In this document: in pieces, positions 12,357 to 41,680 of the stretch
Numbering within the stretch: position 1 is the stretch's first letter
Layout: each line of letters opens with the position of its first letter
Assembly (NCBI RefSeq): GCF_004102725.1
Contig: NZ_LHQS01000001.1
Coordinates: 601,327 to 665,326, forward strand
Origin: Methanoculleus taiwanensis
GTDB lineage: Archaea; Halobacteriota; Methanomicrobia; Methanomicrobiales; Methanoculleaceae
Direction: 5' to 3'
Length of the DNA: 64,000 nt
Notes under the pieces: model-generated
The model's database searches: none
Told to the model about the DNA's origin: nothing
What the model saw: the letters and a program-made list of their open reading frames with translations, nothing else
Program-made: the position numbers and the translations under genes

Positions 12357-12567
12357 CTTTTCCTGTATCTCCATTCTGCATTGTCACTTCGCGACCGTCA
12401 GGTCGCGCCGGGGTTTCGAAAGGGGCGGCGCCCCTTCGGTGCGCAAGAGTAAAGGCCGCGGGTTCAAATCCCGCCAAGTCCATTTCTTGTATCTCCATTC
12501 TGCATTGTCACTTCGCGACCGTCAGGTCGCGTCGGGGTTTCGAAAGGGGCAAAGCCCCTTCGGTGCG
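12323..12567. repeat. Tandem duplication of tRNA-Ala 3' half plus downstream flank
   Basis: About 120 bases starting in the anticodon 3' stem of tRNA-Ala (12323-12443) recur with an offset of 124-126 bases at 12449-12567. Both copies carry the T arm, the acceptor 3' strand, and a flank with two hairpins: CGCGACC/GGTCGCG around GTCA, and AAGGGGC/GCCCCTT. They differ by a few substitutions and small gaps. The pattern resembles the scar of integration at a tRNA 3' end, or a slippage duplication. No integrase is adjacent. Confidence 0.85.
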
Positions 12568-13935: not shown

Positions 13936-14388
13936 ATGCCTACTGTCAGAACTATGAGCAGAGCGGATGATGCGGTCTCCCGGTTTTTGGAGGGTTCCAG
14001 TTGTGCACAGGCGGTAACCTCGGTCTTCGCTCCCGATCTCGGGCTTACCGAGGAGCAGGCGCTCCGGGTCTCGGCGGGCTTCGGGGGCGGCATGGGTCAG
14101 ACCGGCGGGGTATGCGGTGTGGTCTCCGCGGGGATCATCGTCCTCGGGCTTCGCTACGGGAGCGGTGTAGCGGGGGATAAAGAGGGGCGGGCAAAAATCT
14201 ACGCCGTCGTGGCGGAGTTCATCGACCGGTTCAGGGAGCGGCACGGCGCGATCGACTGCCCCGCCCTCCTCGGGTGCGATCTCTCCGTGCCGGAGGAGCG
14301 GAAGCGGGCGCGGGAGCAGAACCTCACCAGGGACGTCTGCCCGGAGTACGTCCGCGATGCAGTGGAGATCCTCGAAGATCTTCTCTAA
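13936..14388 (+). CDS. C_GCAxxG_C_C family redox protein
   Basis: 150 residues or less. The family cysteines are all present: SSCAQAV, the GGVCG segment within GGGMGQTGGVCGVVSAG, LLGCDL, and a late VCPEY. The family name comes from this spacing; members are small redox or metal proteins of unknown role in anaerobes. An in-frame ATG at 13954 is a likely alternative start, since the family begins close to the A-D-x-A helix. It is divergent from the propeller protein. Confidence 0.8.
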   Translation: MPTVRTMSRADDAVSRFLEGSSCAQAVTSVFAPDLGLTEEQALRVSAGFGGGMGQTGGVCGVVSAGIIVLGLRYGSGVAGDKEGRAKIYAVVAEFIDRFRERHGAIDCPALLGCDLSVPEERKRAREQNLTRDVCPEYVRDAVEILEDLL

Positions 14389-14395
14389 CTCTTTT

Positions 14396-15577
14396 TTACC
14401 CGACGAGGCGGCGGATCGCCTTTCCGAGCCGGTCTATCCCCTCGACGATCATCGCTTCGCTCGCGTTTGAGAAGTTCAGGCGCATGGCGGTATCGCCGCC
14501 GCCGTCGACGTAGAACGCCCGGCCAGGCACGAACGCGACGTTCTCGCAGAGCGCGAGCTCGAGGAGTGTTGTCGTCGAGCAGCCGTCCGGGAGCGTGACC
14601 CAGAGGAACATCCCGCCCTCGGGCTTCGTGACCGAGATATCTGCCGGGAACGACTCCCCGATGCAGGAGAGCATCAGATCGCGCCGTGCCCGGTACTCCC
14701 CGACGATGCGCTCGATATGGGCATCGAGGTCGTTCTCCTCCAGGTAGCGGGTGATGATCCGCTGGGCGAGGACGTTCGAGTGGAGGTCGGATGCCTGCTT
14801 TGCGACGTTCACCTGCTCGATGATCTCCCGTGGCGCAGAGATCCACCCCATCCGCAGCCCCGGCGTGACGATCTTCGAGAACGATCCGGTGATGATCGTC
14901 TTCTCCGGAAGGTACGTCCGAAGCGACGGGAGGCTCTTTCCGTCGAACCGGAGTTCGCCGTAGGCATCGTCCTCGACGAAGAGGGTCTCCGTGCCGGCGA
15001 GGATATCGGCGATCGCCCGCCGCTTCGCGTCGGAGTACGTGACACCCGATGGGTTCTGGGCGTTCGGGACGCCGTAGAAGAACCGGGACGGGTGCTTCCC
15101 GAGCACGCTTGCGAGTTCCTCCGTATCGGGCCCGTCGTTCCCGAGCGCGACGGTATGGAACTCCGGTTCGTAGAGGGAGAATGCCTGAATGGCGCCGAGG
15201 TAGCCCGGCCGCTCGATCAGAACCGGGTCGCCCGCATCAAGGAGCACCTTTCCGATGAGGTCGAGGCACTGCTGCGACCCGTTCGTGATCAGGATCTCGT
15301 CCGGGTCGACGGAGAGGCTGAGCCTTTCCTTGTAACGGTCGGCGATGAAGGTGCGGAGCGGCAGGTACCCCTCGGTCGTGCTGTATTGGAGGGCGGACTC
15401 TCCCGCGTGCTTCATGACGTACTCGGCGGCCGCCCTGAGTTCCTCGACGGCGAAGAGTGAGGGGCTCGGAAGCCCTCCGGCGAACGAGATGACCTCGGGC
15501 CGTTCGGTCGTCTTCAGGATATCGCGGATGAACGATCGCGGGGTCGTCTGCATCCGGGAAGCAAAGTGGTATGGCAT
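14396..15577 (-). CDS. PLP-dependent aminotransferase (class I, 2-aminoadipate/MocR type)
   Basis: 393 residues. Fold-type I motifs are clear: ISFAGGLPSP near the N terminus, QYSTTEGYLPLR, NPSG (PNAQNPSGVTY), DDAYGEL, and the PLP lysine in TGSFSKIVTPGLRMGW. The closest named groups are LysN-like 2-aminoadipate and aromatic aminotransferases. The ATG at 15577 is preferred to that at 15601 because it begins the usual MPYHFASRM opening. There is no obvious pathway partner next to it. Confidence 0.88.
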   Translation of the reverse strand: MPYHFASRMQTTPRSFIRDILKTTERPEVISFAGGLPSPSLFAVEELRAAAEYVMKHAGESALQYSTTEGYLPLRTFIADRYKERLSLSVDPDEILITNGSQQCLDLIGKVLLDAGDPVLIERPGYLGAIQAFSLYEPEFHTVALGNDGPDTEELASVLGKHPSRFFYGVPNAQNPSGVTYSDAKRRAIADILAGTETLFVEDDAYGELRFDGKSLPSLRTYLPEKTIITGSFSKIVTPGLRMGWISAPREIIEQVNVAKQASDLHSNVLAQRIITRYLEENDLDAHIERIVGEYRARRDLMLSCIGESFPADISVTKPEGGMFLWVTLPDGCSTTTLLELALCENVAFVPGRAFYVDGGGDTAMRLNFSNASEAMIVEGIDRLGKAIRRLVG

Positions 15578-15689
15578 GGTCTGGTTTCTCCTCCGGGGCA
15601 CCAGGGGTATTCTATTCTCCGGGCGGTGCGTGGTAGAGAATTTTTGCTCTTATCCGGGATAATAGATGCAGGAGAGGAGGGTTTCGGGG

Positions 15690-16775
15690 TTACCGTTTCC
15701 CCGCTATCCGGTCGCCGCCCGCGAGGCCGCCCGAGAGGAGCGTCTCCACGCGGAGCCGGTACGCCCTGGCGAGTGCCGAAGGCGGTGTGTTCTTCAGCCC
15801 GAGCGCCCGCCGCTCGACGAGGTTCCAGGAGAGGTATGCGAGCGGGAAGGTCATCGCAAACGAGAGGACGGCGAGCACCGGTGCCGCGACTGCGTCCTGC
15901 GTCGCCTGGATCACCGCCTGCTGAAGGGGATAGTGGTAGATGTACATCCCGTAGGAGAAGTCGCCCGCCCGCCCGAAGCCGCTGAGGAACGGGATCGGAA
16001 GGTGGGCAAAGTACAGCGTCAGGTACGGAATGCAGAGCACTCCTGCGGCGGTGACATACGGCGTTGCGATGGCGAGGAGAAGCACGGCGAGGAGCACTCC
16101 TGCTATCCGGACATCGTAGACGATCCGCTCCCGGTGGAGGTAGAGGTAGGCACCGACGAGGAAGTAGAGCGTGAACCGCACTTTCCCGAGGCTCGGGTCG
16201 GCGTACCAGGGCAGCCAGATGAGGAGGTTTACGAGGATCAGCCCGGGGACGACGCCCCGCCGGCTTAAAAGGCCGGTCACGCCGCAGATCGCGACGATGC
16301 CGTACATGAAGACTTCGACCGGGATCGTCCAGAGCGAGCTGTTCACATTCGTCACGGGGTTGCCCTGAAAAAGGCCGATAATCGCACCGTTCTCGAAGAA
16401 CGGCGCCGAAACGAGACCCTGCCACGAGAAGAGCGATGCGTAGTACCCGGACAACGGGAGGGTCGTCATCAACGGGCCGATGATGAAGAGCGTGATGAAG
16501 ACCATCGGTACGAGGGCGGGAACCACCCGCAGAAACCGTTTCCAGATAAACCTGCCCGGTGATGAGGTTGTCTCCCAGCTGGCCGTGATCAGGTAGCCGC
16601 TGGTGACGAAGAGCGCGGCGAGCGCGGCACACCCAACCATGAGAACCGGGTCGTCCGGCCGGATCCGGGCGTAGCCGAGCGAGAGCGAGTATGCGTGAGC
16701 GACGATCACAACCGCTGCGGCGGCAAACCGGAGCGCATCGAAGTTGTTCTCGTGCCTGCCCGGGTTCATACGCAT
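15690..16775 (-). CDS. Acyltransferase 3 family membrane protein
   Basis: 361 residues with about ten hydrophobic helices. The acyltransferase-3 opening is present: NNFDALRFAAAAVVIVAHAYSL with the catalytic-type histidine, then SGYLI and the WKRFLRVVPALVP basic loop. These integral membrane enzymes O-acylate surface sugars and lipids. The likely target here is S-layer or surface glycan, which is an inference. An ATG two codons downstream is equally possible. It stands alone. Confidence 0.85.
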   Translation of the reverse strand: MRMNPGRHENNFDALRFAAAAVVIVAHAYSLSLGYARIRPDDPVLMVGCAALAALFVTSGYLITASWETTSSPGRFIWKRFLRVVPALVPMVFITLFIIGPLMTTLPLSGYYASLFSWQGLVSAPFFENGAIIGLFQGNPVTNVNSSLWTIPVEVFMYGIVAICGVTGLLSRRGVVPGLILVNLLIWLPWYADPSLGKVRFTLYFLVGAYLYLHRERIVYDVRIAGVLLAVLLLAIATPYVTAAGVLCIPYLTLYFAHLPIPFLSGFGRAGDFSYGMYIYHYPLQQAVIQATQDAVAAPVLAVLSFAMTFPLAYLSWNLVERRALGLKNTPPSALARAYRLRVETLLSGGLAGGDRIAGKR

Positions 16776-16851
16776 ACCGGTTTCCCTTCAGTGCATATAC
16801 ATCTCTCTCCCCGACCCGGGGCGCGGCAACCCCGGAAAAATAGTGTCGGTT

Positions 16852-17280
16852 TTAGTCGGTTGCCGGGAACGACTCGCCTTCTTCCTGTTCCGCGCACGGC
16901 AGCGAGAAGTGGGTGAGTGTGCAGAGCCAGGTTTCGCCCTCGCGCCTGAAGACGGCGGTCATCCTCCCTTCGAGCGGTTCGCTCTTCCCCTCGAACGTCG
17001 GGGTGATCGTGCACCGTGCGGCGGTCCAGGCGACGTCTCCCGTTCCCGCGACCCGGATATCCTCAAACTCCATCGAGAGCGCGTCGCACTGGATGAAGTC
17101 CCGCTCGAGCCCGAGCCGGTACTCCTCGGGGTCGGTGCAGACCTCGTCCGATCCCGACCCGAAGGCCATGAACTCCGGAGCGGTCAGCGCGAGCACCGCA
17201 TCGGGGTCGCGGCGGCTGTATGCGGCGCCGTACTCTTTCAGTCTCTCTTTAACCGTCTCGTTCGATTTTTCGTCAAGCAT
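16852..17280 (-). CDS. SnoaL/NTF2-like protein
   Basis: 142 residues with the NTF2-like pattern: an N-terminal helix (KERLKEYGAAYSRRDPDAVLALTAPE), a central VAWTAARC strand, and a final GETWLCTLTHFSLP strand. Stand-alone NTF2-like proteins of this kind are often annotated as nuclear transport factor 2 family; the pocket may bind a small ligand. No catalytic residue can be assigned. It has its own upstream region shared with the divergent YhfC-like gene. Confidence 0.7.
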   Translation of the reverse strand: MLDEKSNETVKERLKEYGAAYSRRDPDAVLALTAPEFMAFGSGSDEVCTDPEEYRLGLERDFIQCDALSMEFEDIRVAGTGDVAWTAARCTITPTFEGKSEPLEGRMTAVFRREGETWLCTLTHFSLPCAEQEEGESFPATD

Positions 17281-29939: not shown

Positions 29940-30412
29940 TCATCCCATAACTCTCCAGAGCATCATTGCACATGCCAGGTAGATGAGTCCCAAGAATGAG
30001 TATTCATATCGCTCATATCGTGGAACGACCTTCTTAAATGCCTCTATCCAGCTGAAAAATCGTTCAACAGCACTGCGCTTTTTATACAATTCCGGATCAA
30101 ACCAGAATGGCCTTCCCCGCTTGGGATATTTCCTTGATCTTCGATTCACGGGAATATTGCTCCTGATTCTTCGTTCTCGATTGTACTGGCGAATCTCCCG
30201 GGAATCGTAAGCTGCATCTGCCGAGATGATAGTGGGATGATCTTGGACGTCTGGAATCGTGAATGCTTCGAGAGTTGGTTCGTAGAGTCGTGAATCGTGG
30301 ATATTTGCTGGGAAAACGGTGCAGGCGAGGGGAAGACCATTCTGATCGACCAAAGCGCTCAGTTTACTCCCTTTTACTTTCTTATAGCCATCATAACCGG
30401 TCGATCCCCCTT
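29940..30412 (-). CDS. IS5-family transposase, C-terminal frame
   Basis: The DDE catalytic part: ALVDQNGLPLACTVFPANIHDS, then IISADAAYDSREIRQY, and the final RSAVERFFSWIEAFKKV with the catalytic glutamate, ending near LMLWRV-like helices. An ATG-like start within the frame exists at 30353, but the frame runs back to the slippery site near 30412. It is probably made only as a fusion to the N-terminal frame by -1 frameshifting. Confidence 0.82.
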
Positions 30413-30733
30413 TTTTGCTTGAATATCCTTGGTATCCGTCGAACAGTGCCCTAAATCGATTTTCTGAAGGATATAGCCGGCGCGGAGAAGGTCAAGGAAA
30501 ATGTCCTGATAGATGCCGTGCTCAGCAAGATAGAGGTGAAAGCGGTGTACCGTCGATTTCGTGCCGTATTGCCGAGGAACATCGCTCCAGGTACAGCCGG
30601 TGGTCAGGACAAAGAGAATACCGTTGAACATGGCACGATGGTCGGTTCGCGGACGTCCAATATGGGGTTTCTGAGCGGGGAGATGCGGCTCGATGATTGC
30701 CCAGAGATCATCGTCGATTTCCCGGAAGGCCAT
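30374..30733 (-). CDS. IS5-family transposase, N-terminal frame
   Basis: 119 residues with the IS5 opening (DDDLWAIIEPHLPAQKPHIGRPR) and GCTWSDVPRQYG. The frame ends shortly after the slippery sequence A-AAA-AAG (minus strand, about 30407-30413). A -1 shift there joins it to KKGGSTGYDGYKKVKGSKL, the expected IS5 continuation. The first catalytic aspartate lies in the short HCSTDTKDI stretch. Confidence 0.82.
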   Translation of the reverse strand: MAFREIDDDLWAIIEPHLPAQKPHIGRPRTDHRAMFNGILFVLTTGCTWSDVPRQYGTKSTVHRFHLYLAEHGIYQDIFLDLLRAGYILQKIDLGHCSTDTKDIQAKKGDRPVMMAIRK

Positions 30734-30842
30734 ACACCTCGGGTTTTATTCAAGAGGCCTTATAATTATGGGATATCCTCATTGATAAACTGATCAAAAA
30801 AGAGAGCAGCGCTTGATATTAGCGTTCCCAAACGGTAGTGCT

Positions 30843-31601
30843 ATGACAACCAATGACAAACTTGAGAAGTCATTAGGGATACTAGTTGAACCCGCAATTT
30901 TAATTGCGGTGATCACGAGTGGACTCTATTGTATTGCTCGTGTTTATACTGATAGTTATTTTCATCGATTGAGTCTAGATCCTGGTATTCTCTCTTTTTC
31001 ATCTGAGGATTATTTTCAATTTGGGTTCGTTCCGCTCGTTTTAACAATTATTTTAGTGGCAGCTTATATTTTTGTACTAGAGATTCAAGAAAATAGCAGA
31101 ACTATTGTCTTTTTGTCAAACATACCTTTTTTACTATACTACATTGCCGGACTTTTCTTTTTGACCCAAATATCCCTATTTCATTGGAAACCACTTCCAA
31201 TTGCCTTGCTTTTAATTTTCATTGCCTCTTTTGTAGCTTACTTTTACTTTTCAATGATAAGTCAGGCTTTTTTTTCAAATACATGGCAGCAAAGTAATTT
31301 TGGGAAATTAAGGGTGTTGTACATTCTTATTGTACTAGCAATTTTAATTGTTGCTTCGTTTGGTACATTTTATGCGGCTCAGAATGTTGAAGGGAATTTG
31401 CCAAATACTATTGTCATTGGATTCGAGGCGCAAAATGGATCATTCCGACCTCTCCAAGAGTATTCTGAATTTGTCTTAATCTCTTATCACAGCGGAAACT
31501 ATTACGTTACTCCAAGACTGGAACATGCCCCTCCCGATCCAAGAGTATATGTGATACCAGAGAGGGAAGTTGAAATAGTAATCCTAAAATGCCTCAAATA
31601 A
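30843..31601 (+). CDS. Orphan AT-rich membrane protein
   Basis: 252 residues, family not recognised. About five hydrophobic helices cover residues 15-190 (PAILIAVITSGLYCIA, LVLTIILVAAYIFVL, IPFLLYYIAGLFFL, PIALLLIFIASFVAYFYF, VLYILIVLAILIVASF), followed by a soluble tail of about 65 residues that may face outward. Base composition is far more AT-rich than the genes before 29 kb, suggesting transfer. It lies just right of the insertion sequence and is convergent with the KAP gene. Confidence 0.6.
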   Translation: MTTNDKLEKSLGILVEPAILIAVITSGLYCIARVYTDSYFHRLSLDPGILSFSSEDYFQFGFVPLVLTIILVAAYIFVLEIQENSRTIVFLSNIPFLLYYIAGLFFLTQISLFHWKPLPIALLLIFIASFVAYFYFSMISQAFFSNTWQQSNFGKLRVLYILIVLAILIVASFGTFYAAQNVEGNLPNTIVIGFEAQNGSFRPLQEYSEFVLISYHSGNYYVTPRLEHAPPDPRVYVIPEREVEIVILKCLK

Positions 31602-31641: not shown

Positions 31642-31836
31642 TTAATCTCCCGTTTCACCCAGACCGCGTAGACCGGCACCCCCCACACCCAGCACTGCAG
31701 CACAGACCGCCGGGTACCATGTCGGGCCGGAGAGGCAGTACTGCCCGATGGCCATCGAGACCGCCGGGATGCCGAGCCCCGGGACGAGGATGGAGACCCA
31801 GAGCTTTCGGGTGATGGTTATCTGCCGGTCCGTCAC
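31642..31836 (-). CDS. Small membrane protein of a locally repeated family (copy A)
   Basis: 64 residues from a GTG start. A basic N terminus (TDRQITITRKLW) is followed by two hydrophobic stretches. Related starts occur at 37148 (intact, shorter), 37979 (truncated) and 34581 (stop at codon four), all with the same upstream leader. GC-rich, unlike its AT-rich neighbours. It has no canonical SD; the leader reads CCGCCGCAATCCTCC in the coding direction. Confidence 0.45.
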   Translation of the reverse strand: MTDRQITITRKLWVSILVPGLGIPAVSMAIGQYCLSGPTWYPAVCAAVLGVGGAGLRGLGETGD

Positions 31837-31885
31837 GATGGAGGATTGCGGCGGAGAGGGGAAATGGGTTGTGGATTGGTTTGGA
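31642..31885. repeat. Dispersed leader-plus-small-ORF repeat, copy A
   Basis: First of four related segments in the accessory region. The shared part on the + strand reads CACGATGGAGGATTGCGGCG, then GAGGGGAAA. Here it joins the intact 64-residue ORF. It lies between the orphan membrane protein and the KAP gene. Confidence 0.7.
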
Positions 31886-31947: not shown

Positions 31948-34491
31948 TCAGCTTCCCGGTCCCTCGGTAATGATGATGTAATCTATGACACGGATATCCA
32001 TCTCTAAACATTCTACCTCAATATCATACCGATTTGAAGCAAGCCCCGAAATATCGAATAAGCATTCCCATTGATTGTTCTCTCCGCCTTCTTTAACTTT
32101 GACAGTTGCTGTCATGCCAGAGAATCTGTTACGCTGTTTTTTCAAATGAGGGGAATAATCCATGTTTTGTACTTTTACAAGAAGCTCTGTGCCAATGGCT
32201 AAATTTGTCTCTCCCCTCAATGTTACTATGCTCATTTGACTCTTATCTACCCTTTTGTCCTCAAATTGATCAATTGAAAGCCAGGGTTTTTCCACAATAA
32301 AAGTTAGTTTTGTATAAATATCGCTACACTGGGGGCTTGTTAGGAAATCAATCAAAGCAAGAGCAGATCCTTTTGGGTCATTATTTAAAATCTGATGCGA
32401 ATCCGTTGGATCATATCGAGATTTTATGTACCCGGATTCTTCAAAGACATCCGGTTCTGAGTTCGTGTTTGGATGTTGAATTATAACAAAATAAGTACCC
32501 GGATTCATTGCACGTGTTTTCGCACCACCTAGAGTGTATTGGTATTCGCCACTAGATCTAACGCCAACTGGGTCTCTGATTGCACAATATGGTCCAAATG
32601 TCCATACGTAGATTTGAGAAGGGTTGCCTTCAGCGGTACCAGTTATCCTTATTGCATTTCCCTGCGCTACTGCTGATGCACTAAGTGAACCTGTAATATA
32701 GGGGACTCTTATAACCAACGATTGTGTAGAATAAGTAGGACGCTTTTGATAATCGACATGGAGCTGCTCTTTATCATATGGCTGGGAAACAGCATAGATT
32801 GTGTAAGTTCCTCCCGTTAGATGTTTGGCGATGGTGGATGTTTCCCACTTATATTCCCAAGTCTGATCATTACCCACAGGAATTCTAGTGAAAGTATCCT
32901 CATTGCCGTGAATTACAGGGTCAGTTAAGTTTTCAAGGCTTGTTCCTGCCGGCGGAAGATTTGGTCCAATAATAAACAGATATAGAGTGTTACTTGCCGT
33001 GCACGTGCCTGTAATTGATAATTCTTCTCCGGTAAACGCTACACCAGTTCCGGAAATGGTTATGGTGAGGCTCATGTACGTGTTCTCTTCTGTGCCATTG
33101 CCGCTTTGCTTGTCGCTTTTTGGTGAAGAAAAGTTCTCAGATGCTACCGTACTTAGAAAAATGCATTTTCCAAGATTGAAGTCTGTGAAAATCTTATCAC
33201 CGGTTCGCAAAATCAGTTGGGTCTTGCCATCGCTCTTGAAACTATTAAATAGTGTATGGATATTTTCTGGCAATCTGGACAACACATCTGCATCCTTGCC
33301 TTCAGCTTCTCTTGCATACTCTTGCAAATATAGGAGGAGGTCGAAATTTGATTTTATTTCGCGTACGAATGGCTCTGAGTAAAAGTTCAGAAGAACCCAC
33401 TTTATTAGTATTTCTTTTTCGATGCCATTCCCAAGAGCAGACATTAAGCTTAAAGTATTGAAAAACCGCTTGATTTCTCTTGGGTTGCTATCCAGTCCAT
33501 TTACAATTAATTCTTCATATTCTTGAATTAATTCTCCAACCAACAACTCTTTTTCAATAAAATCCTTAACGCCTTGCCTTGATATTGCGGGGAGATTGAA
33601 TTCTAATTGAATCATTTTTTTAATATATTCTCTTCCTGAAAAACTGTGACCACCTTCAAGCCCAAGCTGTTTATAACGTGAATCTACCGCCCTTGATATC
33701 AGGTTGATGTCCATTCCTAGAACAAAAACACACCCTTTTTGGTCGAAAAATAAATTTATCGATTCTAAAATGTTTGTGACCACGCCTGGGGGACACCGAT
33801 CAAGGTCGTCAATAAATATTACGAGAACACCATCGCGGTCGTCAAAATCACCGTCATCGTATTCTTCACCACAGATGTATCGCCTTAGAACACATCGTAA
33901 ATATCTGCTAAACTCATTGTAAAAAGAGGGATTTTCTTTATATATCGGCTTCTTGACCCATTTTTCATAGTTAGGGCTGAGTCCTGAAAGGGATCCCATT
34001 CCGCTGAAAATTCCGATAGCGGATAGTGAAGTACTGACAAAGTCTTGGATTACCACTTCGGTTCTAACGCGATCCGTGTCTATGAGTTCGTGGATCCATC
34101 TTTCCGTTTTCTTAAAGAAATCTCCTGTCTCAAGTCGGTCGCAATTATTTGAAAGTTGCTCATGAATTTCAAGTGATAATGCGGCGAGAAGTACGTCGGT
34201 TTCGGGATATTTCCATGCGTTAAACCATACTGTTCTGATTTTCCTGTAATCATCGTCGCCTTTTTTACATCTATTAATCAACTCTTCACGGAGGGTTTTC
34301 ATCAGCGAGGTTTTCCCAGTTCCCCATCGTCCATTTACTGCTATAGAGAAAGGAGTTTCATTATCTTTATTCAGTATGATTTCCGAAATTCCCTCGATAT
34401 ATCTTTCAAAATTAAAGTGTTTTGCTCCTTTTGTGGGGCTATCTGAATACATATTGATATTTGACACAGTACGGTCGCGGTTTTGATTCAT
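31948..34491 (-). CDS. KAP-family P-loop NTPase fused to S-layer-type domains
   Basis: 847 residues. The KAP NTPase fills about 25-460: Walker A GRWGTGKTS (54-62), FNAWKY (90-95), one hydrophobic insert near 150-170, Walker B LVIFIDDLDRC (223-233), and NPREIKRFFN (335-344). After a Ser/Gly/Glu linker (about 453-470) come three beta domains. The first two have SITGTCTASNTLYLFIIGPN-type strands, and the last (about 750-845) reads like the closing domain of Methanoculleus-type S-layer proteins (LRGETNLAIGTELLVKV). No signal peptide. AT-rich. An ATG at 34452 is an alternative start. Confidence 0.85.
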   Translation of the reverse strand: MNQNRDRTVSNINMYSDSPTKGAKHFNFERYIEGISEIILNKDNETPFSIAVNGRWGTGKTSLMKTLREELINRCKKGDDDYRKIRTVWFNAWKYPETDVLLAALSLEIHEQLSNNCDRLETGDFFKKTERWIHELIDTDRVRTEVVIQDFVSTSLSAIGIFSGMGSLSGLSPNYEKWVKKPIYKENPSFYNEFSRYLRCVLRRYICGEEYDDGDFDDRDGVLVIFIDDLDRCPPGVVTNILESINLFFDQKGCVFVLGMDINLISRAVDSRYKQLGLEGGHSFSGREYIKKMIQLEFNLPAISRQGVKDFIEKELLVGELIQEYEELIVNGLDSNPREIKRFFNTLSLMSALGNGIEKEILIKWVLLNFYSEPFVREIKSNFDLLLYLQEYAREAEGKDADVLSRLPENIHTLFNSFKSDGKTQLILRTGDKIFTDFNLGKCIFLSTVASENFSSPKSDKQSGNGTEENTYMSLTITISGTGVAFTGEELSITGTCTASNTLYLFIIGPNLPPAGTSLENLTDPVIHGNEDTFTRIPVGNDQTWEYKWETSTIAKHLTGGTYTIYAVSQPYDKEQLHVDYQKRPTYSTQSLVIRVPYITGSLSASAVAQGNAIRITGTAEGNPSQIYVWTFGPYCAIRDPVGVRSSGEYQYTLGGAKTRAMNPGTYFVIIQHPNTNSEPDVFEESGYIKSRYDPTDSHQILNNDPKGSALALIDFLTSPQCSDIYTKLTFIVEKPWLSIDQFEDKRVDKSQMSIVTLRGETNLAIGTELLVKVQNMDYSPHLKKQRNRFSGMTATVKVKEGGENNQWECLFDISGLASNRYDIEVECLEMDIRVIDYIIITEGPGS

Positions 34492-34544: not shown

Positions 34545-34625
34545 GGGTAATGCCGGTTACCTCCCGGCTCTAGTCTGTCACGATGGAGGATTGCGGCGGG
34601 GAGGGGAAAAGGATTGCTAAAAGAA
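34545..34625. repeat. Dispersed repeat, copy B (ORF destroyed)
   Basis: The leader CACGATGGAGGATTGCGGCG is intact at 34579 onward, but the small ORF stops at its fourth codon (GTG ACA GAC TAG on the minus strand). It lies in the 138-base gap between the KAP gene and the restriction endonuclease. Confidence 0.7.
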
Positions 34626-34629
34626 TCTC

Positions 34630-35940
34630 TTACCCGGTTTGGAACTCTATGTTGTCGCAGATCCAGTGGAGCCAGCGTTTCACGGTCGAAGCTCTCCTTC
34701 CTACCGTCTGGCCGGATAGTGTGGTGTTCTCACGGATGACTTCTGCAATGTGGTTTTTGTCCAGCCTGTCAAGGTTACAATCCCGTTGAATCAGATCCCG
34801 CATCAGGACATTGAAGGTCGGCTTTGCCAGAATCTGCTTCAGCAACAGCAAGTTTCTCTGGGTCCGGTTGCTGCAACGGCGCAACTCCTCCCCAAGGGGA
34901 GTGAGATCAAACCTCTTCTCCTCGTCATCGTCACGCTTCAGAAAGCCGAGATAAATTGCAGCGTTAGCATAATAATCGCCTTGCCGTTCATCAAACTCGA
35001 AAGAAAGGGCGATGAGATCTTTTGTATTGAGGTTGTCATCAAACCGGGTCACAATGTCTATGACTTTGTCAAGGTCGTTTGCCTGTGGATACGGAACGTC
35101 GTGAGGCTCGCTGTCGGCGACCGAGAGGGTTCTGATCAACTCGTTGAGATTGAGCATCTGCTTGAGGGGTTCGTTAATGACGAAACCCCGGCACTTTACA
35201 ACCTGTAACTCGCCAAAGGCATCCCCAAACTTGAACTCCGTTAGATAAAAGATTCCGTTTGTATAGATAACAAACAGTGGGATAACTTCTTTATCCGTTC
35301 TGATCGACCAATCCCGATACGGGTAGTAGAGCTGCCGGATGTGGAAATCATCCCGCTTCCCGATCTTCGTTTCCAGGACATAGACCTTGTCCGGGCTCTC
35401 AAAGCCGGCGTCCACCTCGATCTGCACACCCGAGACACTGACACAGTGATCGCAGTTTGGGAGATGGAAATCAAACTCGTTTGAACGCAGTCTTCCACGA
35501 ATCGTCAGAAATAACTCTGATTCACCTGTGAATGTCTTAATCAGGGATATGAGATAGGCGTAGTCGATAGCCTGCGATTCGCTTGAGATCGTGCCTAGCT
35601 GGAGCGTTTTAAAGTTATGAATATCGGGTTTTGGGACGTATTCGGTAATGAGAACATCATCCAGTGACGATTCATACGAATAGTAACTTTTCAGGCTGTT
35701 ATCTTTGAAAATAATGTATCGGCCATTATCAACGGGGAAGATTGAAAGGTCATGCTGCTTAAAGATAGCCGGCCGCGAACTCTGGGTATCCTGCTTTGCC
35801 ATCAGACGAGGTTCGCGGCGATCACCACTGTTCCCTTTGAGCTCATCGGCCGTGATGTAGACAAAACCCTTACTATTTATTTGTTCGAGAAGATTGAGGT
35901 TTTCAAAGACGCTCTTCCAAGCCTCATCGTTTTTTCCCAT
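34630..35940 (-). CDS. Restriction endonuclease-like protein (PD-(D/E)XK), paired with Dam
   Basis: 436 residues. A PD-(D/E)XK core is visible: an EVDAGF strand with D177, then VLETKIG with E190 and K192, followed by Q203-x-x-Y. The C-terminal part (about 300-430) looks winged-helix-like and may read DNA. The ATG overlaps the stop of the upstream methyltransferase (TAATG), so both are made together as a type II restriction-modification pair. The recognition site is not shown by the sequence; GATC is possible from the partner. AT-rich, horizontally acquired. Confidence 0.75.
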   Translation of the reverse strand: MGKNDEAWKSVFENLNLLEQINSKGFVYITADELKGNSGDRREPRLMAKQDTQSSRPAIFKQHDLSIFPVDNGRYIIFKDNSLKSYYSYESSLDDVLITEYVPKPDIHNFKTLQLGTISSESQAIDYAYLISLIKTFTGESELFLTIRGRLRSNEFDFHLPNCDHCVSVSGVQIEVDAGFESPDKVYVLETKIGKRDDFHIRQLYYPYRDWSIRTDKEVIPLFVIYTNGIFYLTEFKFGDAFGELQVVKCRGFVINEPLKQMLNLNELIRTLSVADSEPHDVPYPQANDLDKVIDIVTRFDDNLNTKDLIALSFEFDERQGDYYANAAIYLGFLKRDDDEEKRFDLTPLGEELRRCSNRTQRNLLLLKQILAKPTFNVLMRDLIQRDCNLDRLDKNHIAEVIRENTTLSGQTVGRRASTVKRWLHWICDNIEFQTG

Positions 35941-36884
35941 TAGAACACCGAAAGGTCGTTTCTTTCGGTTTTGTAATTTGTAATTATTAATTCATTGATT
36001 TCGCCCCGTCGCTCTCCGTTACAGTTTATTGCACGGCGGGCGGAGACCCGATCGATGGTATACTCCGGATAGAGGTCTTCAAAGAAGTGATCATTCGGAT
36101 CTTCATTTTTCGGATCCGAGTTGCTCAGCATCAACTTTGCCCCTTTTGCGTCAAGTTCGTGGAAGAATCCGGCGAGGCGTTTCTGGTCTTCGTCTCCGAA
36201 TCTGTCTTTGGAGTATGAGGTAAAACTTGATGTCTGGTTCAGTGGCCGGTATGGCGGGTCAAAGTAAACGAACGTCTTTTCATCAACGTACCGAGCACAG
36301 TCTGAAAAATCACCGAGATGGATGCTTGTGTTTTCGAGGAGAGCAGAATCGTTCCGCAATATTTCCTGATTCAGTATCTGGGGCTTTTTATGTCGACCAA
36401 AGGGAACGTTGAACTCGCCCTTTGAGTTGACCCGGAACAAACCGTTGAAGCAGGTCTTGTTCAGGAAGATGAGATCTGCTGCTCTCCGGATCCATGCTTT
36501 GTTGTACTTCTGCGGCTGAATCGAGGTTTTGAACTCATTATACTTGTTGCGGATTTCGTAGAAGTACTCCTGCCGTTTTTCGGTATCCAGCTGCAGGTAT
36601 GTGGTTTCTACGTCCTTTAGGATCTCAATGAGTTCCTCAACATCATGCTTGACAACAGTATACGCGAGTACGAGCTCTTCATTTACGTCAAAAATGTGGC
36701 ATTCGTCAAACTGGTATTGATTATTGATATAGAAGTATACGGCTCCCCCGCCCACAAATGGTTCGACATATGTATTGGTAAGGCCTTTTCTCACCTCTTC
36801 CGGGAGTCTAATCTCAAATTCCTTGAGTAATTGGCCTTTTCCACCAGCCCACTTCAAAAAAGGCTTGGCATTCTGAGTTTTCAT
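35940..36884 (-). CDS. Dam/DpnM-type DNA adenine-N6 methyltransferase
   Basis: 314 residues, class alpha (D12) layout. The SAM motif is FLKWAGGKGQLL (9-20), EPFVGGGAVYF follows at 41-51, CFNGLFRVNSKGEFNVPFG covers about 145-163, and the catalytic DPPY is 209-212. It methylates adenine in DNA and would protect the host from the coupled endonuclease. DpnM-like relatives act on GATC, but target specificity here is an inference. It is the first gene of the two-gene unit. Confidence 0.92.
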   Translation of the reverse strand: MKTQNAKPFLKWAGGKGQLLKEFEIRLPEEVRKGLTNTYVEPFVGGGAVYFYINNQYQFDECHIFDVNEELVLAYTVVKHDVEELIEILKDVETTYLQLDTEKRQEYFYEIRNKYNEFKTSIQPQKYNKAWIRRAADLIFLNKTCFNGLFRVNSKGEFNVPFGRHKKPQILNQEILRNDSALLENTSIHLGDFSDCARYVDEKTFVYFDPPYRPLNQTSSFTSYSKDRFGDEDQKRLAGFFHELDAKGAKLMLSNSDPKNEDPNDHFFEDLYPEYTIDRVSARRAINCNGERRGEINELIITNYKTERNDLSVF

Positions 36885-37028: not shown

Positions 37029-37148
37029 TCAAAAGACTCCGTTGATCGGCACCCCCACGACCAGTACCACGACCACCGGCAGGCCGAACCCGACGATCAG
37101 GACGGAGCGCCATACCCTCCGGGTGACGGGTACCCGCCGGTCTGCCAC
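37029..37148 (-). CDS. Small membrane protein of the repeated family (copy C, 39 aa)
   Basis: A GTG-started frame of 39 residues: basic N terminus (VADRRVPVTRRVWRS) then one hydrophobic helix (VLIVGFGLPVVVVLVVGVPI). It aligns with the first 35 residues of the 64-residue copy A, and both share the upstream leader. That the frame survives despite sequence divergence hints at selection, but it is too short to be sure. Confidence 0.4.
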   Translation of the reverse strand: MADRRVPVTRRVWRSVLIVGFGLPVVVVLVVGVPINGVF

Positions 37149-37192
37149 GAGAGAGGATTGCGGCGGGGAAGGGAAAAGAGTTGCTCATCCGG
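37029..37192. repeat. Dispersed repeat, copy C
   Basis: Shares the leader (here CACGAGAGAGGATTGCGGCG, then GAAGGGAAA) and the 5' part of the small ORF with copies A, B and D. It lies between the Dam gene and the 37348 gene. Confidence 0.7.
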
Positions 37193-37833: not shown

Positions 37834-38363
37834 GGGAGAGGATCTGCCTCACCTCTTAACTCTTCACGAATCCGTTTTTACTTCCTGATACTACTTCTCA
37901 AACTTCCGGTTCACCCGGCACCCCGGCGACCGGGACAGAGCCGGAGCTTTTGGGTGGTGGGTATCCGCCGGCCCGTCACGACGGAGGATTATGGCCGGGA
38001 TAGTAAAAGAAGTGCTAAACGAAGCCGTATCGAATGTGAGCAAAAACCGTACTGGCATGCCCGCCCTCTCCCGCAGCAGTCTCCCGGACTTCTTCACCGG
38101 CGGTATATCCGGAGCTCCCGGGAGGTGAACCCGAATCCATATCCTGCGCGTCTCCGGCGAGCCCTCTCCCGTTCCCCTCCCGGACCGGGCAATCCCGGCA
38201 TAAATGATTCAGTAATGTTCATATGATGCCTTTTTTCACATTCAGCGAACGCCCCGAACCTTTTTAACCCCCATCTCCCCACGCTGAAACAAGCGGTGCA
38301 CGACAACGGCTTACTCCCCCGGAGGACGCCGGTGCATCGCGAAAAACAACAGAGAGGCAACGC
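37834..38363. other. Intergenic region with repeat copy D and cassette promoter
   Basis: 530 bases without a supported gene. Copy D of the repeat lies at 37911-38022. A CTTTTTAAC box at about 38258-38266 would serve the replication cassette that starts at 38364. The long minus-strand frame across 38094-38675 lacks family support. Confidence 0.5.
37911..38022. repeat. Dispersed repeat, copy D (ORF truncated to 22 codons)
   Basis: The leader is diverged (CACGACGGAGGATTATGGCC) and the small ORF, starting GTG at 37979 on the minus strand, stops after 22 codons (VTGRRIPTTQKLR then a non-hydrophobic end). The most decayed copy apart from B. Confidence 0.6.
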
Positions 38364-38744
38364 ATGAAACCGAAACCCATACCCATGGACGATACCGGAG
38401 CCCCCGGAGAGCAGCGGGGCACCTCTGTCCTGAAAGAATCGAGAAGAGAAGACGAAGTAATCTGCGGCGGCAGCCAGGCACAACCAATTGTTTCCAGCAC
38501 TCGGATGCACCGGACCGCCAATGGTACTCGGCACTGCAACAATATAAGCATCGCCACCCCGGGAGATGCACCGCAGAAGGTGCCGCTCTACCTCATCGCC
38601 CACGCGGTCGCGGCCGAGGTAGTCCGGCACAAACGGAGACTGCGCGAGATCCACGTCACCTGCACGGCAGGGCACTACTACGCTATCACCACGGTGGCCG
38701 GAAAGGAGGCAGGGTCCTCCCCCACCCCGGAGGTGGCGGAATGA
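38364..38744 (+). CDS. Hypothetical protein upstream of primase-helicase
   Basis: 126 residues, not recognised. The first 70 residues are polar and look disordered; the last 55 (LYLIAHAVAAEVVRHKRRLREIHVTC) form a helix-strand unit. GAGAGG precedes the ATG. Its stop overlaps the primase-helicase start by four bases (ATGA), so it belongs to the replication cassette and is probably an accessory or regulator. Confidence 0.65.
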   Translation: MKPKPIPMDDTGAPGEQRGTSVLKESRREDEVICGGSQAQPIVSSTRMHRTANGTRHCNNISIATPGDAPQKVPLYLIAHAVAAEVVRHKRRLREIHVTCTAGHYYAITTVAGKEAGSSPTPEVAE

Positions 38745-41680
38745 GCGACGCTATCCGCCGTGCGGTGGAGGTGCTCGCCCCGGGCGGCGTTGTGGAGGTG
38801 CGGGCGCTCGCGGAGAGTGCCGTTCACTCCGGCTACTTCGACGACCGCACGGAGCTCGCCGGCCGGGCAGCGGTGCTCGATGCCGACCCGGAGGTTGCCG
38901 GGATCTACGTCACCTTAAACCCCGTCAACCCGGCGCTCCTCGCCCGACGGGCGAACCGGATCAAGCTGCGCCTTACGAAGAAAGACGCGACGACGGCCGA
39001 TACCGATATCGTGAGACGCCGGTGGCTCCCGGTCGACATCGACCCGGTGCGCCCGAGCGGGGTCTCGTCCACCACTGCGGAGCACGACCTCGCCCTCGCG
39101 ACGGCGGAGAAGATCGCCGCCTGGCTCAGCGAGCAGGGCTTCCCGGCGCCGGTTGCGGCCGACTCCGGGAACGGCGCCCACCTCCTCTACCGTATCGATC
39201 TTCCGAACGACGAGGCGGCGACCGGACTCGTGAAGGGCTGCCTCGCGACCCTCGACGCGCTCTTCTCGAACGAGAAGGTCACCGTCGACACCGCGAACTA
39301 CAACGCCGCCCGAATCTGGAAGCTCTACGGCACGGTCTCCCGGAAGGGCGATTCCACCCCCGAGCGGCCGCACCGGCGGGCGAAGTTCCTCGCGGTTCCT
39401 GACGAGATCGCAGTGGTTCCGGTGGAACGGCTACGGCACCTCGCCGGACTGCTCCCGAAAGAAGAGCCGGCGGCGCCGAAGAAGGGCGCCGGCATCGACC
39501 TCGCCGCCTGGCTCGCAGGCCACAAGATCGCCGTCCGGTCTGCAAAACCCTACCGGGGCGGGACGCTCTACGTCCTTGAGGACTGCCCGTTCTCGGCGGC
39601 GCACAAGGACGGTGCGTTCGCGATCCAGTTTGCGAACGGTGCGATCTTCGCCGGGTGCCACCACCAGAGCTGCGGCGGCGGGCGGCAGCGCTGGCCGGAG
39701 CTCCGGGCACAGTTCGAGAAGCCGAAGCAGAAGAAACCACGGGGCGGGGAGCTCTCCTCTCCTCCCGTCCCTGCACCGGAGCAGGACGAGTACCGGGAAA
39801 AGGCGCTCGCCGTCCTGAAAGAGGGCGACCCGCTCGGGTTCCTGCTCGACACCTTCCACCGGGAGCACGTCGGCGATGCCGCAGTGGCGAAATGCCTCAT
39901 CATGTCGCTCGCCTCGCAGTCGATCGCAAACACCAGAGGCCTGCACGTCGCCATCTCCGGCAAGTCCGGCAAGGGCAAAACGCACGCCTGCGCGGCGATG
40001 CTCGCGCAGGTGCCGGAGCAGTACCGCCTCGCCGGCACGGTCAGCGACAAGGCGCTCTACTACAACAACCGATTGTGCCCCGGCACGGTCTTCCTCTTCG
40101 ACGACGTGTCGCTCTCCGACGACCTGCAGGAACTCCTGAAGGCGGCCACCGCGAACTTCAGGGAACGGATCGAGCACCAGACCGTAACCACCGACCGGCA
40201 ACTCCGGATCTGCACCATCCCGGAACGGTGCGTCTGGTGGCTTGCGAAGGTCGAGAATATCGGCGACGACCAGGTGGCGAACCGGATGCTGACGGTCTGG
40301 ATCGACGACTCCGCGGAGCAGGATCGGGCGGTGCTCGAACACCTCAAGGTGAGCGAGGCACGGGCTCCCGGGGCGGTGGCGGTGGCGGAGGAGGTGCACG
40401 TCTGCCGGGCGATCTGGACGCTCCTCAAGGAGCGGCTCGTTCACGTCATCATCCCGTTCGCGACCCGTATCCAGTTCTCGAACGCCGCGAACCGCAGAAA
40501 CCCCGGTATCCTCTTCGACCTCATTAAATGTCACGCCCTGCTCCGGTGCCTGCAGCGCGAGCAGGTGCCGTCGGCTTCGGGGGATCTCTGCATTCTCGCG
40601 ACCCGGGAAGATTTCAAGGCCGCGGCCGACCTCTACGCCTCTCTCAACGGGGTGACCGGTGGGCAGGAGACGAAACTCACCAGGAACGAGGCGGCCGCCC
40701 TCATGACGGTCGTGGCGATGGGCGCCCCTGTCTTCACCATCAAGCAGCTCCAGCAGGCGATGGGACTCACCTACTACCAGACCCGGCGTATCATGAACGG
40801 CTACGTCAACCGGGGCACCACCTACGCAGGGCTGCTTGAGAAGTGCCCGGCGGTCAGCTGCGTCGACGCCACGGTGACGGAGGACGGCTGCGGCACCACG
40901 GTCCGGCGGCGGGAGCACCATTACTTCTTCGACGTCGCGTTGTATCGAAACTGGAGCGCCGGGGCTGCGGTCTGGATCGATGAGGACGGCGATGAGGATG
41001 GTGACGACGATGACGGGTACACCATGGCAGCAGATGTACATCGTATGTACACCGCGTGGTGCCACCCTCAAAAAGGCGAAAACGGGGAGGGATCTGGTGA
41101 TACTCTTCATAATAGTACAAAAAGCGTTTCTCATAGTACTGATGTACACCAGGATCGGAGGGCACAGTCCAAGCAGCGTGCTCTCTCCCCTCACACTGCA
41201 TGTGTCTGTGCTTTGGAGAATGGTGTACATGTCGGGGCGAAAACGGCTTTTGAGTCTCGAATCAGTGCCGTTCCTCAGGAATCGCCTTCGCTCGGTGACA
41301 CCACGCGGTGTACACCGGTACACCCGGGCACCTCGCCGCTGTACATGGTGTACCCGACCGACTACATCCCGCTCCCGGTGCCGAAAAACGAGCCCTGCCA
41401 CGTCTGCGGCAGCAGGCCGACGTCGTCGGTGCTGCGGGGGAAGGAGCAGTACCTCTGCTATGCCTGCCTGAAGAAGGCGAAGACGCCGGCGAAAGTCCTG
41501 CCCCTGCCCGGCCTGCTCGACCACCGGACGTTCGAACGGGCGGGCGTCGATCTCGGGCGGTGCACGATCTGCGATTCGGAGAAGGCGGTCTACCGCTCCC
41601 GGGAGGCGCAGGCGAATGTCTGTGAGGGATGTTATGCACGGCTTGTGCGGGAGTGGAACCGGGAGGCGGGGGTGCGGTGA
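38741..41680 (+). CDS. Primase-helicase replication protein of an integrated element
   Basis: 979 residues. The N-terminal part looks like an archaeo-eukaryotic primase: VDIDPVRPSG near 99-108, then SGNGAHLLYRI near 143-153. A Cys/His zinc knuckle follows (CPFSAAHKDG...CHHQSC, about 282-311). The ATPase part has Walker A SGKSGKGKTH (about 405-414) and Walker B VFLFDDVS (about 449). A winged helix lies near 660-700. A polar, acidic linker (about 745-870) leads to two C-terminal zinc ribbons (CHVC...CYAC and CTIC...CEGC). Such proteins copy plasmids and viruses. No integrase is adjacent. Confidence 0.82.
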   Translation: MSDAIRRAVEVLAPGGVVEVRALAESAVHSGYFDDRTELAGRAAVLDADPEVAGIYVTLNPVNPALLARRANRIKLRLTKKDATTADTDIVRRRWLPVDIDPVRPSGVSSTTAEHDLALATAEKIAAWLSEQGFPAPVAADSGNGAHLLYRIDLPNDEAATGLVKGCLATLDALFSNEKVTVDTANYNAARIWKLYGTVSRKGDSTPERPHRRAKFLAVPDEIAVVPVERLRHLAGLLPKEEPAAPKKGAGIDLAAWLAGHKIAVRSAKPYRGGTLYVLEDCPFSAAHKDGAFAIQFANGAIFAGCHHQSCGGGRQRWPELRAQFEKPKQKKPRGGELSSPPVPAPEQDEYREKALAVLKEGDPLGFLLDTFHREHVGDAAVAKCLIMSLASQSIANTRGLHVAISGKSGKGKTHACAAMLAQVPEQYRLAGTVSDKALYYNNRLCPGTVFLFDDVSLSDDLQELLKAATANFRERIEHQTVTTDRQLRICTIPERCVWWLAKVENIGDDQVANRMLTVWIDDSAEQDRAVLEHLKVSEARAPGAVAVAEEVHVCRAIWTLLKERLVHVIIPFATRIQFSNAANRRNPGILFDLIKCHALLRCLQREQVPSASGDLCILATREDFKAAADLYASLNGVTGGQETKLTRNEAAALMTVVAMGAPVFTIKQLQQAMGLTYYQTRRIMNGYVNRGTTYAGLLEKCPAVSCVDATVTEDGCGTTVRRREHHYFFDVALYRNWSAGAAVWIDEDGDEDGDDDDGYTMAADVHRMYTAWCHPQKGENGEGSGDTLHNSTKSVSHSTDVHQDRRAQSKQRALSPHTACVCALENGVHVGAKTAFESRISAVPQESPSLGDTTRCTPVHPGTSPLYMVYPTDYIPLPVPKNEPCHVCGSRPTSSVLRGKEQYLCYACLKKAKTPAKVLPLPGLLDHRTFERAGVDLGRCTICDSEKAVYRSREAQANVCEGCYARLVREWNREAGVR
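41017..41353. repeat. Cluster of TGTACA/GGTGTACACC motifs inside the primase-helicase gene
   Basis: TGTACA occurs at 41035, 41046, 41143, 41224, 41309 and 41340, with TGTACC at 41349 and GGTACACC at 41017 (partial) and 41317. The fullest form is the palindrome GGTGTACACC at 41307-41316. The cluster coincides with the low-complexity linker of the protein. It may be an iteron array and origin for the element. Confidence 0.55.

What the first reader, a model, noticed from the sequence alone, without database searches (positions are those of the whole stretch)
31948..34491. KAP P-loop NTPase fused to methanogen S-layer-type domains
One uninterrupted AT-rich frame joins an intact KAP NTPase (Walker A 54-62, Walker B 223-233) to three beta domains of the kind found on the outside of Methanomicrobiales cells, yet there is no signal peptide. 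Established: KAP NTPases are often linked to membranes and, in bacteria, to anti-phage loci. Inference: the surface-like part could be a sensor or decoy for viruses that bind the S-layer, with the NTPase as switch. It lies beside a restriction-modification pair, in a region that looks transferred. I do not know a described system with this architecture.
Basis: partly seen in the sequence, partly recalled or inferred. Interest (0 to 1): 0.85.

Follow-up and report, generated by a model that had tools for sequence, protein, structure and literature searches.

The report
Cytosolic NTPase carrying host S-layer domains
A methanogen gene joins an intracellular ATP-driven switch of a kind used in virus defence to a piece of the cell's own outer coat protein; related switches in other methanogens did this separately, each with its own host's coat protein, so it may be an internal bait for viruses that bind the coat, though nobody has tested this.

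Summary
The minus-strand 847-aa ORF joins an intact KAP NTPase (Pfam E 8.5e-35) to the membrane-proximal half of the Methanomicrobiales S-layer glycoprotein (NCBIfam NF041431, E 2.7e-97). It lacks that protein's signal peptide, Thr-rich stalk and PGF-CTERM anchor, and has no transmembrane segment.

It is not an accident. The same KAP lineage (one clade, 99/98) carries S-layer domains in six genomes. Three Methanomicrobiales, from three families, have the MEMAR-type domain. Three Methanosarcinaceae-like genomes have PF07752, an unrelated S-layer domain solved as MA0829. Each fused MEMAR-type piece resembles its own host's S-layer more than the other fusions' pieces, and the data reject one origin for the three (AU p 0.008). 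So host S-layer domains were probably captured or replaced at least three times. Both halves are under purifying selection where testable (dN/dS about 0.2). Bacterial relatives carry FGE/C-lectin, pentapeptide or TIR domains in the same C-terminal slot.

Best reading: a cytosolic NTPase immune receptor with an integrated S-layer decoy. Defence function and trigger are inferred, not shown. I found no published description. Interest is high.

The parts
31948..34491 (-). KAP NTPase - S-layer fusion gene, 847 aa
   Evidence: same architecture in G193 and G106
33439..34407 (-). KAP P-loop NTPase domain, residues 29-351
   Evidence: Pfam PF07693 E 8.5e-35; AF2 pLDDT mostly 75-94 over the P-loop core
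34306..34332 (-). Walker A GRWGTGKTS, residues 54-62
   Evidence: sequence; GxWGxGKT core invariant in all six S-layer-bearing KAPs
33793..33831 (-). Walker B region GVLVIFIDDLDRC, residues 221-233
   Evidence: sequence; VIFIDDLDRC invariant in six relatives
31996..33069 (-). S-layer glycoprotein region, residues 475-832; three beta domains, no stalk or PGF-CTERM anchor
   Evidence: NCBIfam NF041431 positions 393-748/819, E 2.7e-97; aligned with own S-layer glycoprotein
34630..35940 (-). Type II restriction enzyme (DUF6996-DUF6997-DUF7226), neighbour
35940..36884 (-). Dam-type adenine-N6 DNA methyltransferase, neighbour
30813..31601 (+). AT-rich membrane protein of unknown family, convergent with the fusion gene; not a conserved partner
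   Evidence: about five predicted hydrophobic segments; no Pfam match over cut-off; no similarity to the G193 membrane neighbour
31759..31871 (+). GC-rich diverged repeat, copy 1 (downstream edge of the fusion gene)
34573..34616 (+). same repeat, 44-nt piece, 91% (between fusion gene and restriction enzyme)
37071..37183 (+). same repeat, 75% (beyond the methyltransferase)

Best explanation
The gene encodes a soluble, cytosolic KAP-family NTPase whose C-terminal recognition slot holds a captured, non-secreted copy of the host's own S-layer ectodomain. I propose it works as an integrated-decoy immune receptor. Viruses that use the S-layer as receptor must make S-layer-binding tail or spike proteins inside the infected cell. 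These would dock on the cytosolic S-layer copy, and the NTPase would then change nucleotide state or oligomerise. That would either start an abortive response or lock up the viral attachment proteins so that virions are not assembled. SHOWN: the domain composition; recurrence in six genomes of one KAP clade; two unrelated S-layer families, each matching its host lineage; more than one capture; purifying selection on both halves in the Methanosarcinaceae-like set. INFERRED from established family knowledge: ATP use, oligomerisation, a role in defence. INFERRED with no direct test: that the trigger is a virus protein, and the nature of the response.
For: (1) All six S-layer-bearing KAPs form one clade, 99/98. 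PF07752 copies occur in family f8 genomes (E 1e-60 to 4e-54) and MEMAR-type copies in Methanomicrobiales. The two S-layer types show no detectable relation (hhalign probability 0.3%). (2) Each fused MEMAR-type piece is closest to its own genome's S-layer glycoprotein among those compared: 39.5, 38.7 and 35.8%, against 30-31% to the other fusions' pieces, while the KAP halves are up to 50% identical. In trees the window's piece sits in its own family (100/99), G193's in its own (95/88), and a single origin of the three is rejected (AU p 0.008). (3) In P0001 and G193 the captured stretch ends before the stalk and anchor; G106's ends earlier. All omit the signal peptide, and none has a hydrophobic segment. 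(4) Where testable, dN/dS is 0.17-0.28 in both halves. (5) Relatives carry FGE/C-lectin, pentapeptide, HEAT or TIR modules in the same slot; FGE/C-lectin modules on NTPases, KAP included, are proposed antigen sensors (PMC10907252). (6) Patchy presence (3 of 232 and 3 of 112 genomes, plus one broken gene), AT-rich genes, and defence or mobile neighbours: R-M, AriA-like ATPase, SLFN_AlbA_2, casposon Cas1 and PolB, HsdR. (7) KAP proteins QatA and Tmn act in anti-phage systems (NCBIfam name; PMC11846954); S-layer is the receptor of two archaeal tailed viruses (PMC12494034), and MetSV attaches at the S-layer of Methanosarcina mazei (PMC9694453).
Against: No functional test exists. No effector domain or conserved partner gene was found, so the output of the switch is unknown. 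S-layer glycans, which some viruses bind, would be absent from a cytosolic copy. The captured region of the MEMAR-type protein is the membrane-proximal half, not obviously the most exposed part. The fused pieces sit on long branches (2 to 3.7 changes per site), so tree positions carry some risk: G106's piece is unplaced, and placing G193's piece with family f1 is not rejected (p 0.09). No virus is known for these particular hosts in the data I had.
Confidence: 0.55

Rival explanations
1. A direct blocker rather than a sensor: the cytosolic S-layer copy soaks up virus attachment or assembly proteins so that progeny are defective. The NTPase only drives oligomerisation or disaggregation; no cell death follows.
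For: Virus-binding would need only the captured domain. Tail-assembly blockers are known in bacteria (Tai, PMC11364771). No effector domain or partner gene was found.
Against: A strongly conserved NTPase of a family known from defence switches is more than a sponge needs. The bacterial relatives keep the NTPase while changing the C-terminal module, including TIR.
Confidence: 0.15
2. A guard of the host's own S-layer pathway: the fused domain pairs with newly made S-layer protein, or with its export machinery, and the NTPase responds when export or assembly is disturbed, for example by a virus or a competing element.
For: S-layer domains can be expected to meet like partners; the host match fits co-adaptation with the own S-layer just as well; MetSV infection works at the cell surface (PMC9694453).
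Against: The fused pieces have drifted far from the host S-layer (about 39% identity), which argues against tight co-assembly. S-layer is normally exported and folds outside.
Confidence: 0.15
3. A housekeeping factor for S-layer biogenesis or quality control, unrelated to viruses.
For: S-layer homology; KAP NTPases are often membrane-associated.
Against: Present in only 3 of 232 genomes of the class and 3 of 112 of family f8, while S-layer genes are very widespread there. AT-rich islands, casposon and defence neighbours.
Confidence: 0.08
4. A gene-fusion accident with no function.
For: One copy per genome; the KAP-pentapeptide relative in G445 is broken.
Against: Same architecture in six genomes of four families, two unrelated S-layer families, purifying selection on both halves in the Methanosarcinaceae-like copies, uniform composition across the junction.
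Confidence: 0.02

Closest known systems
QatA (KAP NTPase of the QatABCD anti-phage system)
   Same: KAP P-loop core; best curated defence relative (NF041923 E 1.3e-33; PADLOC E 1.6e-27)
   Different: Score 116.6 bits against a cut-off of 600; no qatB, qatC or qatD found beside it; QatA is not known to have an S-layer domain
PADLOC candidate defence family PDC-S20
   Same: Best PADLOC match, E 9.8e-32 over residues 25-347
   Different: The match covers only the NTPase half
Tmn (KAP NTPase with two transmembrane segments, anti-phage, PMC11846954)
   Same: KAP family, defence
   Different: The window protein has no transmembrane segment and has a surface-protein C-terminus
DGR-diversified NTPase conflict proteins with FGE/C-lectin sensors (PMC10907252, PMC7159879)
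   Same: NTPase plus exchangeable C-terminal recognition module; KAP versions are mentioned, and bacterial relatives of P0001 carry FGE
   Different: Here the module is a copy of the host's own surface protein, not a hypervariable lectin fold
Plant NLR immune receptors with integrated decoy domains
   Same: Logic only: an NTPase receptor with a built-in copy of a pathogen's host target, acquired repeatedly
   Different: No homology claimed; different NTPase family, effector and kingdom
KAP ATPase in the casposon MetMah-C1 (PMC4046053)
   Same: KAP gene as casposon cargo; our G341 copy also lies beside casposon Cas1 and PolB
   Different: That paper reports no S-layer domain
RdrA of RADAR
   Same: Best Foldseek match of the predicted model (8hr8, E 2e-7), a ring-forming defence ATPase
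   Different: Low TM-score (0.27) and 12% identity; no deaminase partner

Membership tests
KAP P-loop NTPases (PF07693) | P-loop core with Walker A and B over the curated cut-off | tested here: met
   120.9 bits against a cut-off of 20; motifs invariant in six relatives
KAP P-loop NTPases (PF07693) | Transmembrane segments inserted in the NTPase domain (typical, not universal) | tested here: not met
   No hydrophobic segment in any of the six S-layer-bearing members
MEMAR-type S-layer glycoprotein (NF041431) | Homology of the fused region | tested here: met
   E 2.7e-97 over positions 393-748 of 819
MEMAR-type S-layer glycoprotein (NF041431) | Full-length protein over cut-off, signal peptide, PGF-CTERM anchor | tested here: not met
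   327 bits against a cut-off of 600; no signal, stalk or anchor. It carries the domain but is not an S-layer protein
PF07752 S-layer domain in the family f8 relatives | Curated domain score and solved homologue | tested here: met
   184-205 bits against 30; MA0829 structure 3u2g E 7.6e-49
QatABCD anti-phage system | QatA over equivalog cut-off | tested here: not met
   116.6 of 600 bits
QatABCD anti-phage system | qatB, qatC, qatD neighbours | tested here: not met
   Neighbours of the window copy are an R-M pair and a membrane ORF
Tmn | Two transmembrane segments in the KAP domain | tested here: not met
DGR-linked NTPase antigen sensors | Template/variable repeat and reverse transcriptase beside the gene | tested here: inconclusive
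   Not looked for at the archaeal loci with a dedicated search. Among 17 bacterial KAP-FGE loci one (L032) has a 127-nt near-repeat with 15 of 27 differences at template A; one RT was found in that genome, on contig C16, its distance from the gene not determined
Anti-viral defence system (any) | Protects cells from virus | not testable with these tools
   Needs challenge experiments

The most novel reading that the evidence does not exclude
A prokaryotic intracellular immune receptor that uses a captured copy of the host's own virus receptor, the S-layer, as an integrated decoy, with the decoy captured anew, or replaced, in each host lineage. This would be the archaeal counterpart of plant NLR integrated decoys, with no described prokaryotic precedent that I found.
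Probability: 0.45. Interest if true: 0.93.

Novelty: new variant of a known kind. Interest (0 to 1): 0.84.

Why it matters
If the reading is right, archaea arrived at the integrated-decoy principle that plants use in NLR receptors: putting a piece of the pathogen's target inside the immune sensor itself. The signature found here, one NTPase lineage with at least three probable captures of S-layer domains that match the host lineage, makes that claim directly testable in cultivable methanogens and points to the S-layer as a virus receptor in methanogens. Even if the decoy idea is wrong, a cytosolic NTPase repeatedly fitted with the cell's own coat protein is unexplained. It also suggests a survey method: look for surface-protein domains without signal peptides fused to NTPases.

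Tried and rejected
Assembly or recombination accident: rejected by recurrence, selection and uniform composition. Local recombination of an incoming KAP gene with the resident S-layer gene: not supported, because the S-layer half is as AT-rich as the KAP half (41 against 39% GC; the host S-layer gene is 60%) and only 39.5% identical to it. One ancient fusion inherited by all Methanomicrobiales: rejected for the S-layer part by AU test (p 0.008), though the window and G106 pieces alone are not rejected as sisters (p 0.076). A conserved operon partner: none; membrane neighbours of the window and G193 copies are unrelated. Virus-borne copies: none found in IMG/VR for the S-layer part or the family f8 fusion; viral KAP hits show no S-layer match. 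Plasmid and phage records: only the KAP half matches in the rows listed, under 35% identity. Relation between the two S-layer families: none by profile comparison. Structure: KAP part well predicted, S-layer part low confidence (pLDDT mostly under 60), because relatives from whole-genome searches are not on the list of sequences allowed as input; the Foldseek match to an archaeal S-layer structure (7ptp, E 3e-5) rests on that weak part and is only suggestive. A second prediction of the S-layer part alone had not returned. Laying the whole genome in the Python box was not available.

Full report
What is there. The ORF at 31948-34491 is on the minus strand, 847 aa, ATG start, without internal stops. 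Residues 29-351 are a KAP NTPase (Pfam E 8.5e-35) with intact Walker A and B. Residues 475-832 match positions 393-748 of 819 of NF041431, the MEMAR-type S-layer glycoprotein (E 2.7e-97). The genome's own full-length S-layer glycoprotein (L152, 998.8 bits) has a signal peptide, a Thr-rich stalk and a PGF-CTERM anchor. The fused piece stops just before the stalk and lacks all three. No hydrophobic segment was found in the fusion. Since an NTPase needs cytosolic ATP, the S-layer part must be in the cytosol too (inference).

Composition. The gene is 39% GC in its KAP half and 41% in its S-layer half, against about 62% around it and 60% for the resident S-layer gene. The fusions in G193 and G106 are likewise AT-rich (34 and 32%, against 55 and 52% for their S-layer genes). 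The fusion therefore did not arise by recent joining with the resident S-layer gene.

Distribution. In the class, 11 of 232 genomes have a KAP NTPase at E 1e-10. Three of these, from three families, hold the lineage of the window gene, and all three carry the MEMAR-type S-layer region: the window genome G000 (847 aa), G193 (932 aa) and G106 (764 aa). The region ends at model position 651 in G106 and starts at 355 in G193, so boundaries differ. In family f8 (112 genomes; the PF07752 control rings only in Methanosarcina acetivorans, so Methanosarcinaceae-like; genus not named) the same KAP lineage occurs in four genomes. Three carry PF07752, the S-layer domain of that group (E 1.2e-60, 1.7e-56, 3.8e-54), matching the solved S-layer protein MA0829 (3u2g, E 7.6e-49). 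G449 has pentapeptide repeats in between. The fourth, G445, is a broken KAP-pentapeptide gene.

History. The six S-layer-bearing KAPs are one clade (99/98); the PF07752 three are one clade (100/99); the nearest bacterial sequence found is a Chloroflexi KAP with pentapeptides (94/91, not starred). The two S-layer types have no detectable relation. Within Methanomicrobiales each fused S-layer piece is closer to its own genome's S-layer glycoprotein (39.5, 38.7, 35.8%) than to the other fusions' pieces (30-31%), though the KAP halves are 37-50% identical. For G106 the margin over another genome's S-layer is slight (35.8 against 35.5%). In trees with one fusion at a time, the window piece falls in its own family (100/99) and G193's in its own (95/88); G106's is unplaced. 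The three as one clade are rejected (AU p 0.008), and so is the window piece with G193 (p 0.010), but not the window piece with G106 (p 0.076). Dropping the most divergent resident paralogues keeps the picture, with somewhat weaker support (95/83 and 94/85; G193 with family f1 p 0.09). The fused branches are long, so I claim at least two captures or replacements in Methanomicrobiales plus one in family f8, with moderate rather than full certainty.

Selection. Among the family f8 copies dN/dS is 0.17-0.20 (KAP) and 0.22-0.28 (S-layer). Both halves are maintained. The S-layer halves of G510 and G341 are closer at silent sites (dS 0.24) than their KAP halves (0.53), which hints at exchange of the module.

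The slot. Wider relatives place other modules at the same C-terminal position: FGE-sulfatase (C-lectin fold), pentapeptides, TIR and, in an IMG/VR contig, sigma-70 region 4, and HEAT-like repeats in more distant archaeal KAPs (read by eye). FGE/C-lectin domains on NTPases are proposed antigen sensors, and KAP versions are mentioned (PMC10907252; PMC7159879). So the S-layer piece occupies what is probably a recognition slot.

Neighbourhoods. Window: restriction enzyme and Dam methyltransferase, an IS-type transposase pair at 29940-30733 (read by eye), a membrane ORF. G106: SLFN_AlbA_2 protein and an AriA/OLD-like ATPase with a small partner. G341: casposon-type Cas1 and PolB, and a type I restriction enzyme. 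G510: SLFN_AlbA_2. No partner is conserved, so this looks like a stand-alone gene. A KAP ATPase has been reported in casposon MetMah-C1 (PMC4046053).

How it may work. The S-layer is the receptor of two archaeal tailed viruses (PMC12494034), and MetSV attaches at the S-layer of M. mazei (PMC9694453). A cytosolic S-layer copy could meet such attachment proteins while they are being made. The KAP model resembles ring-forming defence ATPase RdrA (Foldseek E 2e-7, TM 0.27), which fits oligomerisation on activation. The output is unknown. Literature searches found no description of such a fusion; the library holds open-licence papers only.

Filing. It is a KAP NTPase by curated score. It is not an S-layer protein, not QatA, not Tmn. 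Whether it is a defence system cannot be settled by sequence. I rate the integrated-decoy reading about 0.45-0.55 and the recurring host-matched fusion itself well above 0.9.

Noticed in passing
window 31759-31871, 34573-34616, 37071-37183, 37902-38014; G000 contig C2 965266-977259 (L149): A diverged GC-rich repeat brackets the fusion gene and the R-M pair. More copies lie in a second island of the same genome among two large NTPase/NB-ARC-type TPR genes (L149:7268-11980 and 14285-17116), as if genes sit between copies.
   Followed up: partly
window 38741-41680: Large protein of primase-like look (no Pfam match over cut-off) with several copies in this genome, the sister species and G106; in G106 a fragment lies about 3.2 kb from the fusion gene.
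   Followed up: partly
L032:12038-12164 and 12405-12531: The 3' end of a Chloroflexi KAP-FGE gene has a 127-nt near-repeat with 15 of 27 differences at template adenines, as in a diversity-generating retroelement.
   Followed up: partly
L007:1489-2040 (-) and L008:1399-2025 (+): Two short proteins of the window's genome carry single S-layer-type domains but begin with apparent signal peptides, unlike the fusion.
   Followed up: no
L090:985-2676 (IMG/VR contig): A KAP NTPase of the same broad group carries a sigma-70 region 4 domain at its C-terminus.
   Followed up: no
L130:7453-10142: KAP-pentapeptide gene of the same lineage in G445 is broken by an interruption of about 0.7 kb.
   Followed up: no
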